Positions 13,191-57,775 of a stretch of DNA of 64,000 nucleotides are shown one piece after another (position 1 is the first letter of the stretch; every line of letters starts with the position of its first letter). Source of the DNA: Patagioenas fasciata (Eukaryota; Chordata; Aves; Columbiformes; Columbidae). Location of the stretch: assembly GCF_037038585.1 (NCBI RefSeq), contig NC_092523.1, positions 873,001-937,000 on the forward strand. Direction: 5' to 3'. The notes beneath the pieces were generated by a model that worked only from the letters and a program-made list of their open reading frames with translations, was not told where the DNA came from and ran no database searches. Position numbers and translations under genes: made by a program.

Positions 13191-13780
13191 TGCCTGTCCC
13201 TGGGCTGGGACATGGGGATGGGCTGGGGACAAAGGGATGAGCTGGGGACATGGGGATGGGCTGGGGACATGGGGATGGGCTGGGACATGGAGATGAGCTG
13301 GGACAGAGAGATGGGCTGGGGACATGGGGATGGGCTGGGGACATGGGGATGGGCTGAGGACAGAGAGATGAGCTGGGGACATGGAGATGGGCTGGGACAT
13401 GGAGATGTGTTTGTGACAAGGAGATGGGCTGGGACATGAAGATGGGCTGGGGACAGAGAGATGGGCTGGGGACATGGAGATGGGCTGGGGACATGGAGAT
13501 GAGTTGGGACATGGGGATGGGCTGGGACATGGAGATGGGCTGGGATGTGGAGATGGGCTGGGATGTGGAGATGGGCTGGGACATGGAGATGTGTTTGTGA
13601 GACAAGGAGATGGGCTGGGGACATAGGGATGGGCTGGGACATGGAGATGTGTTTGTGACAAGGAGATGGGCTAGGACATGGAGATGGGCTGGAGACATGG
13701 AGATGGGCTGGGACATGGGGATGGGCTGGGACGTGGAGATGGGCTGGGATGTGGAGATGGGCTGGGACATGGATGTGGGG
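13190..13780. repeat. GCTGGGACATGGAGATGG minisatellite
   Basis: About 30 copies of an 18-20 bp unit (GGGCTGGGGACATGGGGATG), with a higher-order insert ATGTGTTTGTGACAAGGAGA seen three times. It adjoins the right arm of the inverted duplication. Confidence 0.95.
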
Positions 13781-13865: not shown

Positions 13866-13942
13866 ACACCCCCAGCTGACACAGACACCCACCCACGGGA
13901 CATGACAGCAGGACACGCACACCCCTGTGCCATCATTGCAGC

Positions 13943-13948
13943 TTTATT
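13943..13948 (-). terminator. Polyadenylation signal of minus protamine
   Basis: AATAAA on the minus strand. The stop codon TAA of the extended frame (13944-13946) lies inside it. Confidence 0.8.
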
Positions 13949-14204
13949 GGAGCCAGGGCTGCGGTGACGCAGCAGCGCGGCGGCGGCCACGGCGGCCGGG
14001 GCTGTCGGGGCCGGTGTTCCGGCAGGAGCCCGGTGTGAAGGCGCGCTGAGCAGGAGCGGTGCCACGTCCCTGCCGGCGGCGGCTCCTCCTGTGCCGCTGG
14101 CGCTGGCTGCCCCCAGAGCGGTGGCGGGAGAGGCTCCGGTGTTGGCTTGGACTGCGGTGGCGGCGCCGGCTCTGCCTGCGGCTCCTTTGCCAGGACCGGG
14201 CCAT
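13944..14204 (-). CDS. Protamine-like sperm basic protein, divergent minus copy
   Basis: Intronless frame of 86 codons from the ATG at 14204, starting MARSWQRSRRQSRRRHRSPS. Residues 1-48 are Arg/Ser-rich like a protamine, which would package DNA in the spermatid nucleus. From about residue 49 the composition changes (GTAPAQRAFTPGSCRNTGPD). The frame stops only at a TAA lying inside the AATAAA signal (13943-13948). Aligned with the plus copy, the matching RRSRRR region is followed by different codons and the old stop is passed, so this copy has probably shifted frame and gained a new tail. Its TATA box (14262-14268) and CRE (14317-14324) are intact and spaced as in the plus copy, which suggests it is still transcribed. 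Whether the protein is made is unknown. Confidence 0.7.
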   Translation of the reverse strand: MARSWQRSRRQSRRRHRSPSQHRSLSRHRSGGSQRQRHRRSRRRQGRGTAPAQRAFTPGSCRNTGPDSPGRRGRRRAAASPQPWLQ

Positions 14205-14261
14205 GGTGGTGCGGCCACCGCTCTGTCCCACCAGAGGATGCGGCTCTGTGTCCCCCCCAGC

Positions 14262-14268
14262 TTTTATA
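14262..14268 (-). promoter_or_regulatory. TATA box of minus protamine
   Basis: TATAAAAG read on the minus strand, 64 bp before the ATG at 14204 and inside the palindromic promoter. Confidence 0.85.
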
Positions 14269-14316
14269 GGGGTGCTGGGGTGGGGGCCTTTGTGACACGG
14301 GCGCCTACCTCATCAG

Positions 14317-14324
14317 TGACGTCA
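14317..14324. promoter_or_regulatory. Full CRE of minus protamine promoter
   Basis: Perfect TGACGTCA, about 49 bp upstream of the TATA box. CREM-tau drives spermatid genes, including mammalian protamines, through such sites. Use by CREM here is inferred. Confidence 0.85.
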
Positions 14325-14431
14325 CAACGTCCCCACAGTGCTGCCTGGACCAGGAGGGAGTGAGTGAGCGGCTGTGTGGGCTGAGCGACCGGCTGGGCTG
14401 GAGCCGCAGCGGCTGCACCGTGGGGACATTG

Positions 14432-14439
14432 TGACGTCA
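14432..14439. promoter_or_regulatory. Full CRE of plus protamine promoter
   Basis: Perfect TGACGTCA, about 48 bp upstream of the plus TATA box and mirror image of the site at 14317-14324. Confidence 0.85.
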
Positions 14440-14486
14440 CTGATGAGGTAGGCACCGTGTCACAAAGGGCCCCGTCCCAGCACTCC

Positions 14487-14493
14487 TATAAAA
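14487..14493 (+). promoter_or_regulatory. TATA box of plus protamine
   Basis: TATAAAA in CACTCCTATAAAAGC, 66 bp before the ATG at 14553. The spacing is nearly identical to the minus copy. Confidence 0.9.
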
Positions 14494-14552
14494 GCAGACT
14501 GGGGGGTGCAGAGCCGCATCATCTGGTGGGACAGGGCAGCGGCCACACCACC

Positions 14553-14717
14553 ATGTGCCGGTACCGGCAGAGCAGGAGCCGCAGCCGGAGCCGGAGCCGC
14601 AGCCACAGCCGGCGCCACCGCCGCTACCGGAGGCGCTCTCGCCCCCGCTACCGGCGCAGCCGCGGCCGGCGGTACAGGAGGAGCCGCCGCCGGGGGTCAC
14701 GGCGCCGCCGCCGCTGA
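14553..14717 (+). CDS. Protamine (galline-like), plus copy
   Basis: Intronless 54-aa protein beginning MCRYRQSRSRSRSRSRSHSR and ending RRRGSRRRRR. More than half of the residues are Arg, and Ser, His and Tyr make up most of the rest. It has one Cys, at position 2, unlike Cys-rich mammalian PRM1 and closer to avian galline. It should replace histones in elongating spermatids. It has a TATA box at 14487-14493, a full CRE at 14432-14439 and AATAAA at 14814-14819. The ATG was chosen by position after the TATA box and by the M-x-R-Y-R start typical of protamines. It pairs head-to-head with the minus copy. Confidence 0.9.
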   Translation: MCRYRQSRSRSRSRSRSHSRRHRRYRRRSRPRYRRSRGRRYRRSRRRGSRRRRR

Positions 14718-14813
14718 GCCCACCCAGCACCGGGCGTCTGGGGAGCCGGTGCTGAGAGCCACAGCCACCACCACCACCACCGTGCCACCGTACCACCCCG
14801 GCCTGGCTCCACC

Positions 14814-14819
14814 AATAAA
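14814..14819 (+). terminator. Polyadenylation signal of plus protamine
   Basis: AATAAA 97 bp after the stop codon, in the context CTCCACCAATAAAGCTGGAA shared with the minus copy. Confidence 0.9.
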
Positions 14820-15063
14820 GCTGGAATGATGGCATGATGGGTGCGTTTCCTGGTGTCTCTGTGTGCTGGCTGCTTGTGCCCCGGTGTCCCCTCCATGTCC
14901 CACAGGTGTGGGTGGTCCATAGGGTGTGTGTGTGTCCATGTCCACCAGCCATTTCCTCTGGTCCTAAAGGATGTCCCCTGCTCCTACCCCTGGTCCCCTG
15001 GACTCCTCTTTAGGGTCCCTCCCATTGCGGGTTCCCGGGTCCAAGCAGAGCCCGCACGGATCG

Positions 15064-56084: not shown

Positions 56085-56715
56085 ACCCAGAATCCCAGAG
56101 TGTGAGGGGCTGAAGGGCCCTGGAAAGCTCATCCAGTGCAACCCCCCCGGAGCAGCAACACCCAGCTGAGGTTCCACAGGAAGGTGTCCAGGCGGGTTTG
56201 AATGTCTGCAGAGGAGACTCCACAACCCCCCTGGGCAGCCTGGGCCAGGCTCTGACACCCTCACCCCCAACAAGTTTCTTCTCAGATTTAAGTGGGACCT
56301 CCTGTGTTCCAGTTTGCACCCATTGCCCCTTGTCCTGACACCCTCACCCCCAACAAGTTTCTTCTCAGATTTAAGTGGGACCTCCTGTGTTCCAGTTTGC
56401 ACCCATTGCCCCTTGTCCTGTCACTGATTGTCACCCAGAAGAGCCTGGCTCCACCCTCCTGACACTGCCCCTTTCCATATTGATCCCCAGGAATGAGTCC
56501 CCCCTCAGTCTCCTCTTCTCCAGCTCCAGAGCCCCAGCTCCCTCAGCCTTTCCTCACACGGGAGATGCTCCACTCCCTTCAGCATCTTGGTGGCTGCGCT
56601 GGACTCTCTCCAGCAGTTCCCTGTCCTTCTGGAGCTGAGGGGCCACAACTGGACACAATATTCCAGGTGTGGTCTCCCCAGGGCAGAACAGAGGGGTAGA
56701 ACCTCCTCATCTTTT
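56085..56715 (-). mobile_element. CR1 LINE fragment with internal 83-bp duplication
   Basis: Antisense CR1 3' part: CAGAATCCCAGAGTGTGAGG at the end, GACTCCACAACCCCCCTGGG, CCTTTCCTCACACGGGAGAT, GGACTCTCTCCAGCAGTTCC and CAATATTCCAGGTGTGGTCT. The stretch 56252-56334 is repeated exactly or almost so at 56335-56417. It lies between AP5S1 and CDC25B. Confidence 0.95.
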
Positions 56716-57775
56716 CAGCCCTGCATGGCCCTGGGGGTCCCAGCCATGACCCAGCTCCATGTCCCCCAGCGGTGTGCCCAAGGTCTGGGACAGTTCCTGC
56801 CACCCCCTGCACAAGGACAGCATTAAATGGGTCATTTGTCCCCACCCCAGCTGCCACCACCCTGGGGGAGCCCCCAAGGACCGCATCACCCCCCAAACCT
56901 CCCCCCTGCAGCCCCTCGCAATGCAGCCACACACCAGGCTGGGGGTTGCTCTCCCTCCTCAAGGAGTTATTAACCAGGAGCTATTAACCAGGAGTGTAAA
57001 AAACACAAACAAAGAAACAAGACACGTGGGCAGAGCCACCCTACGGGTGCCATGGCCCCCCCACGGGTGCCACAGCCCCGGGGGTGGGGGTGCAGCCGCT
57101 CCTGCCCCCCCAGTTCACTAGAGCTGGCTTGTGGGAAGAGAACAAACTACTTTAAATAACATCTGGGGCAGAACAAACCCCAACAACATCAACAGCCCCC
57201 CCAAACAACCCCAGGCAGTTGGTGACTGTGATAAGGGGCACCCCCAGGGTCCCCCACACAGGGACAGGACAGGCCCCACAGCACCCCCAGGGTTAAGTGC
57301 TTTTCTGCAACATTTCTACTAATTAAGCCCCATCAGGGGCTCCCCCACCCCCTCATGGGGGGTCCCCACCATCCCCAGCTCCGTGCCCCCCCCAGCTGCA
57401 CCCCAGGGGCTGACACAGCCCCCTGGCACAGGGTGCGAGGGGAACGGGGTGACGGGGTTGGGGGGCTCCCTACAGCCCCTGAGCCCCCACCCCACTGCGG
57501 GGAGAGCCCCCCACTCCCAGTGAGGCAGAGCTGGCAGTGGCACATTGCATCCCCCCTCCCCATTTAGGGTAAAACCTAAACCCCTTTTTACCCTGTCCTT
57601 AGGGTAAAAAGGGGTAAAACTACAACCTGTCCCCCCTTCCCATGGCCAAGGGTGACACTGTGCAAGGTCCCCAGCACAGGGTGGGGGGGGACATGAGGTT
57701 TCGGGCTGGGAACTGGTGCCTGATGGCAGCCCCAGGAGGTGGGGGGTCCCCAGGAGGGCGGGGGTCCCGGGGGGC
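56716..57775. other. Gap and probable CDC25B 3' UTR
   Basis: Downstream of the CDC25B stop codon. No clear minus-strand AATAAA was found, so the transcript end is uncertain. A short direct repeat (TATTAACCAGGAG) lies at about 56969-56995. Confidence 0.4.

What the first reader, a model, noticed from the sequence alone, without database searches (positions are those of the whole stretch)
13940..14830. Two divergent protamine genes on a palindrome with mirrored CRE/TATA promoters
Seen: two intronless Arg/Ser-rich frames facing away from each other. Each has TGACGTCA and TATAAAA at matched spacing (48-49 bp apart, ATG 64-66 bp on), in inverted copies separated by about 75 bp. Known: CREM-tau acts through CREs on spermatid genes, and mammalian PRM1/PRM2 are tandem, not divergent. 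Inference: an inverted duplication made a bidirectional, spermatid-specific promoter pair in birds.
Basis: partly seen in the sequence, partly recalled or inferred. Interest (0 to 1): 0.85.

Follow-up and report, generated by a model that had tools for sequence, protein, structure and literature searches.

The report
Divergent protamine pair and dispersed copies
In what looks like a bird genome, a back-to-back pair of sperm DNA-packing (protamine) genes is real, but one of the two is decaying, and a relative of it sits intact at about 38 other places in the genome, far more than the two copies birds are said to have.

Summary
In detail: two intronless Arg/Ser-rich frames face outward from inverted arms of about 420 bp, each with TGACGTCA and TATAAAA. 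The arms are 61-96% alike by zone, so this is an old inverted duplication, not a foldback artefact. The + frame (54 aa, 57% Arg) is an intact protamine. The - frame has a net -1 shift, has lost its TGA and runs into the TAA of its own AATAAA (86 aa, 30% Arg). A bidirectional spermatid promoter is plausible but untested. They lie in a dispersed repeat; its upstream anchor occurs 175 times, and 118 units carry one and the same deletion that removes the gene. The dispersed copies share 3' flank with the decayed - arm, so they descend from that side of the palindrome or its ancestor. A review passage says birds tend to have two copies. Expression, species and selection are unproven; two of the 38 are probably assembly duplicates.

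The parts
14411..14836 (+). right arm of the inverted duplication
13926..14345 (-). left arm of the inverted duplication
14346..14410 (.). unpaired centre, 65 bp
   Evidence: pair I3
14432..14439 (+). full CRE TGACGTCA of the + gene
14487..14493 (+). TATAAAA of the + gene
14553..14717 (+). intact protamine frame, 54 aa, begins MCRYR, 31 of 54 Arg
   Evidence: no Pfam match
14814..14819 (+). AATAAA of the + gene
14317..14324 (-). full CRE TGACGTCA of the - frame
14262..14268 (-). TATAAAA of the - frame
13944..14204 (-). decayed protamine frame, 86 aa: protamine-like for about 47 residues, then net -1 shift, TGA lost, stop supplied by the TAA in AATAAA
13943..13948 (-). AATAAA of the - frame, containing its stop codon
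13654..13942 (-). 3' flank of the - frame that is shared with the dispersed copies (the + arm shares only 65 bp past its AATAAA)
13201..13773 (.). 18-bp minisatellite; its near edge is part of the flank shared with the dispersed copies

Best explanation
The locus is an old inverted duplication of a small intronless protamine gene lying between a CPXM-type carboxypeptidase and an EBF-type gene. Shown from sequence: the arms keep mirrored CRE, TATA and poly(A) elements; the + gene is intact; the - gene has lost its frame. A copy of the - side, or of its single-gene ancestor, with its 3' flank, is part of a dispersed repeat whose neighbouring units lie about 16-20 kb apart. The repeat's upstream anchor occurs 175 times; 39 units keep the protamine promoter, 38 of them with an intact frame; 118 carry one identical junction where about 420 bp with the gene were deleted. 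Inferred: CREM-type activators at the CREs switch on the + gene and the dispersed copies in round spermatids, so that much of the protamine in this species' sperm comes from the dispersed copies, which freed the - arm to decay. The - arm may still be transcribed, or its CRE may serve the + gene, because its regulatory parts have changed less than its coding part.
For: Palindrome beyond chance. CDS branch lengths + 0.074, - 0.238, dispersed 0.059; promoter plus 5'UTR 0.051, 0.099, 0.165. 40 further places: 38 found by both searches, C12 by pattern only, C28 by DNA only. 38 of 40 intact frames; of these 38, TATA in 38, exact CRE in 36, AATAAA in 26. 34 of 38 distinct over 1,487 columns. Shared 3' flank with the - arm. 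Anchor 175, junction 118, controls 0; 6 of 6 fetched gene-less units share the junction. In mouse, CREM binds Prm1 and Prm2 (PMC3285179, passages).
Against: No expression data. Selection on the dispersed CDS is not shown: pN/pS about 1.0; under an assumed neutral CpG-weighted model no disruption in 28 substitutions has probability 0.32; CpG sites vary more in CDS (20 of 58) than upstream (8 of 37) or downstream (6 of 30). 12 of 38 copies lack AATAAA and 2 lack the exact CRE. Three sets of copies are identical; two on C36 are probably false duplicates. No Pfam match for either protein.
Confidence: 0.72

Rival explanations
1. One reading: both arms are working protamine genes driven by one bidirectional CREM-dependent promoter kept as a pair; the - product is a protamine with a new tail.
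For: CRE, TATA, 5'UTR and the 23-nt poly(A) element of the - arm are well kept; the - frame is open from ATG to the poly(A) site.
Against: Net -1 shift, lost TGA, Arg 26 of 86, no Tyr, long CDS and 3'UTR branches.
Confidence: 0.15
2. The dispersed copies are silent passengers of a spreading subtelomere-like repeat; only the C4 + gene makes sperm protamine, and intact frames reflect recent spread.
For: The 175 anchors and 118 gene-deleted units show that the repeat spreads without the gene; no selection is demonstrable; 12 of 38 copies lack AATAAA.
Against: 38 of 40 frames intact, and 26 of 38 keep CRE, TATA and AATAAA; in-frame length changes only, all multiples of 6.
Confidence: 0.28
3. The high copy number is mostly an assembly artefact (false duplications, unmerged haplotypes).
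For: Anchors on C36 recur at exactly 1,711,263 bp; L018 and L019 are identical over 9,264 bp; three identical sets among 38.
Against: 34 of 38 copies are distinct over 1,487 columns and the 39 promoter matches lie on 18 contigs. Artefacts can remove a few copies, hardly thirty.
Confidence: 0.07

Closest known systems
Avian protamine genes (chicken, quail)
   Same: Small, Arg/Ser-rich, apparently intronless; two copies are stated for birds (PMC7126135, one passage), and here too a pair stands at one locus.
   Different: Here the pair is 74.5% alike in CDS, not identical, one member is decayed, and 40 further places carry the gene. Whether the chicken pair is divergent I could not check; the 1989 Oliva and Dixon gene paper is recalled, not seen.
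Mammalian PRM1/PRM2/TNP2 cluster
   Same: CRE-bearing spermatid genes bound by CREM in mouse (PMC3285179, passages).
   Different: Recalled as tandem and at human 16p13; this window instead holds M14 peptidase, EBF, TRC8/RING, AP5S1 and CDC25-type exons, recalled as a 20p13-type set.
Multiplied sperm nuclear basic protein genes of Drosophila (19 amplification events)
   Same: Young, lineage-specific multiplication of a sperm packaging gene, up to about 50 copies (PMC9917458, abstract and passages).
   Different: There mostly on sex chromosomes and often in tandem; here dispersed over 18 contigs, sex linkage unknown, with a majority of gene-deleted units.
Salmonid protamine multigene family (recalled)
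   Same: A vertebrate with many intronless protamine genes.
   Different: Recalled only; one search for it listed nothing on the topic among 10 of 520 papers. No link there to a repeat with gene-deleted units is known to me.

Membership tests
Protamine (+ frame and dispersed copies) | Short, very Arg-rich protein | tested here: met
   + frame 31 of 54 Arg; dispersed copy L010 31 of 53 Arg
Protamine (+ frame and dispersed copies) | N-terminus of MARYR type | tested here: met
   + frame MCRYR; dispersed copies MARYR in most, MARNR in some. MARYR is given for mammals in PMC7126135
Protamine (+ frame and dispersed copies) | Match to a Pfam protamine profile | tested here: inconclusive
   0 families at E up to 10 and up to 1; I suspect that composition filters suppress such sequences
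Protamine (+ frame and dispersed copies) | Made in spermatids and bound to sperm DNA | not testable with these tools
   no RNA or protein data
Protamine (- frame) | Short, very Arg-rich protein | tested here: not met
   26 of 86 Arg, 19 of the first 47; frameshift and stop loss
Bidirectional CREM-type promoter | Divergent CRE and TATA pairs within 1 kb | tested here: met
Bidirectional CREM-type promoter | CREM bound, both directions transcribed | not testable with these tools
   needs testis CUT&RUN and RNA
Mammalian-type PRM cluster | Shared gene neighbourhood | tested here: not met
   Pfam on selected exon frames shows other neighbours within 64 kb; the mammalian order is recalled
[quoted passage not shown]
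   40 further places, 38 intact; threshold from PMC9917458
Conflict-type SNBP amplification | Sex-chromosome bias or effect on transmission | not tested

The most novel reading that the evidence does not exclude
Protamine genes riding on a dispersed, subtelomere-like repeat have become a selfish or dosage-driving multicopy system in a bird: haplotypes with more copies gain in spermatids, the parental gene at the palindrome was replaced and is dying, and the gene-deleted units are the resistant or decayed state. It would be a vertebrate, dispersed counterpart of protamine-derived drive in Drosophila.
Probability: 0.1. Interest if true: 0.88.

Novelty: new variant of a known kind. Interest (0 to 1): 0.62.

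Why it matters
Protamine dose shapes sperm chromatin, and birds are described as tending to have two copies. A genome with about 38 intact, nearly identical dispersed copies beside a decaying parental pair lets one test whether vertebrate protamines multiply by dosage, drift or genetic conflict. Testis RNA, sperm peptides and copy-number variation between individuals would decide it, and the gene-deleted units give a built-in control.

Tried and rejected
Foldback or assembly artefact for the palindrome: rejected, since the arms are 61-96% alike by zone. Gene conversion that fades with distance as the only reason for the kept promoter: disfavoured, because the far 23-nt poly(A) element is 96% alike while CDS (74.5%) and 3'UTR (61.5%) between are not. 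Insertion of the gene into a gene-free repeat as the source of the gene-less units: rejected, since 6 of 6 fetched units keep the end of the gene's 3'UTR and its 3' flank. Proof of purifying selection on the dispersed CDS: not obtained. 8 synonymous variants of 28 against 3.5 expected under the assumed CpG model would favour constraint, but several come from gap placement in the SR repeat. Nine frames of the repeat unit (one, eight): no Pfam match. PDB and Rfam: nothing. The protein alignment behind the dN/dS values (0.55-0.8) is poor for the - frame, so they are not used. Literature: nine searches; lists were capped, and none of the listed titles reports avian protamine multiplication; most subscription papers are not held. 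My own earlier count of 35 distinct copies missed an identical pair because of unequal ends; one search gives 34.

Full report
What the window shows. Two outward-facing, uninterrupted Arg/Ser-rich frames lie on inverted arms around 14346-14410. The arms align with a score of 325 against a maximum of 37 in 300 shuffles. Each arm has TGACGTCA, TATAAAA 47-48 bp further on, an ATG 64-66 bp after the TATA start, and an AATAAA inside a 23-nt element that is 96% alike between the arms. The window's only two TGACGTCA are these.

The two frames are not equals. The + frame gives 54 residues, 31 of them Arg. The - frame looks like a protamine for about 47 residues; then a net -1 shift and the loss of the TGA let it run to the TAA inside its own AATAAA: 86 residues, 26 Arg, no Tyr. 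With a dispersed copy as third sequence, Jukes-Cantor branches in the CDS are 0.074 for +, 0.238 for - and 0.059 for the dispersed copy; in the 3'UTR 0.109, 0.432 and 0.062; in promoter plus 5'UTR 0.051, 0.099 and 0.165. The coding part of the - arm decays fast, its control parts slowly. I read this as a dying gene whose promoter may still act, for itself or for its partner.

Neighbourhood. On the - strand the window holds M14 carboxypeptidase exons (0.4-2.8 kb), an EBF DNA-binding exon (29.8-30.8 kb), a TRC8/RING gene (38.6-39.7 kb), AP5S1 (54.2-54.6 kb) and an M-phase inducer phosphatase exon (59.8-60.2 kb) (ten proteins given, selected frames only). From memory this is the gene set of human 20p13, not the PRM cluster at 16p13.

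The dispersed copies. A DNA search of the own genome (1.454 Gb, 359 contigs; 40 of 51 candidates scored) with the locus found 39 places outside C4. A 53-nt promoter/5'UTR pattern with up to 3 mismatches found 39 places, reversed control 0. The two sets share 38; the pattern adds C12, the DNA search adds C28: 40 places, all fetched. Of the 40, 38 have an intact frame of 49-55 aa, C12 is truncated within the CDS and C28 stops after MAG. Of the 38, TATA is present in 38, the exact CRE in 36, AATAAA in 26, and all of these in 26. CRE and TATA starts are 44 bp apart in the 20 copies, against 55-56 bp in the window. 34 of 38 are distinct over 1,487 alignment columns; the 703 pairs average 98.9% identity. 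Over about 2.5 kb the first 20 average 98.3%.

Caveat on number. L018 and L019, both on C36, are identical over 9,264 bp; L050 and L051, also on C36, are identical too, and several C36 anchors repeat at exactly 1,711,263 bp. Two of the 38 are therefore probably false duplicates; the identical set L035-L037 may include more. Since not all candidates were scored, diverged copies may also have been missed.

Where they sit. The 39 pattern places lie within 3.06 Mb of a contig end (median 1.37 Mb) on 18 contigs, none of them C1-C11; contig ends need not be chromosome ends. On C39 two copies lie 20.2 kb apart in a stretch with a 39-bp minisatellite, a 19/38-bp array and degenerate CCCTAA repeats. 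Nine frames of the unit and the copy's own protein match nothing in Pfam.

Units without the gene. A 65-nt anchor about 450 bp upstream of the gene occurs 175 times, control 0. Six gene-less units were fetched, six of up to 136. All six share one junction that removes promoter, CDS and part of the 3'UTR, about 420 bp, but keep the end of the 3'UTR and the 3' flank; the AATAAA itself is intact in one of the six. That junction occurs 118 times, control 0. So the gene was in the unit first and was lost, most simply once, after which the deleted form spread; some 18 anchors are accounted for by neither pattern.

Parentage. A dispersed copy is homologous to the - arm over 708 alignment columns, window 14340 to 13654, about 290 bp past AATAAA and into the edge of the 18-bp minisatellite; homology to the + arm ends 65 bp past AATAAA. 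The dispersed unit therefore came from the - side, or from the single gene that stood there before the inverted duplication. In the CDS the dispersed copy is nearer to + (87.8%) than to - (75.5%), as expected if - decayed later.

Function. Activation by CREM-type factors in round spermatids is inferred from the CRE/TATA layout and from mouse, where CREM binds Prm1 and Prm2 and both fall in Crem knock-outs (PMC3285179, passages). That the dispersed copies supply sperm protamine is inferred from their intact frames and control elements. Selection on them is not shown: pN/pS is about 1.0, and under an assumed neutral model with CpG transitions weighted twentyfold, 28 substitutions would leave the frame undisrupted with probability 0.32. 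Non-CpG sites vary at 4 of 104 in CDS, 36 of 613 upstream and 23 of 398 downstream; CpG sites at 20 of 58, 8 of 37 and 6 of 30. Length changes in the CDS are multiples of 6 only.

Known or new. [quoted passage not shown] Nine literature searches, with capped lists, showed no title on avian protamine multiplication. The nearest described process is the multiplication of sperm nuclear basic protein genes in Drosophila, preferentially on sex chromosomes (PMC9917458, abstract and passages). I rate this a new variant of a known kind: protamines and two-copy bird loci are known; a dispersed repeat with gene-bearing and gene-deleted units beside a dying parental palindrome is, as far as I could see, not described.

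Noticed in passing
G000 contigs C12-C49 and others, e.g. L052-L057: A dispersed repeat with an upstream anchor present 175 times; at least the listed places match it without mismatch. What it is (segmental duplication or mobile unit) was not settled.
   Followed up: partly
G000:C36, offset 1,711,263 bp: Several anchors recur at exactly this offset and two 9.3 kb stretches are identical: probable false duplication in the assembly.
   Followed up: partly
G000 contigs C27, C31, C33, C35: A gene-less unit lies about 18.6-18.7 kb upstream of a gene-bearing one again and again, as if a two-unit block had been copied between chromosomes.
   Followed up: no
window 56681-56760 (-): ARAGORN calls a tRNA-Trp; not checked further, and Rfam at gathering threshold lists no tRNA here.
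   Followed up: no
window 1215-63749: Very dense minisatellites: 125 overlapping rows at score 100 or more in a GC-rich stretch (57-76%) about 0.9 Mb from the start of an 81.5 Mb contig.
   Followed up: no
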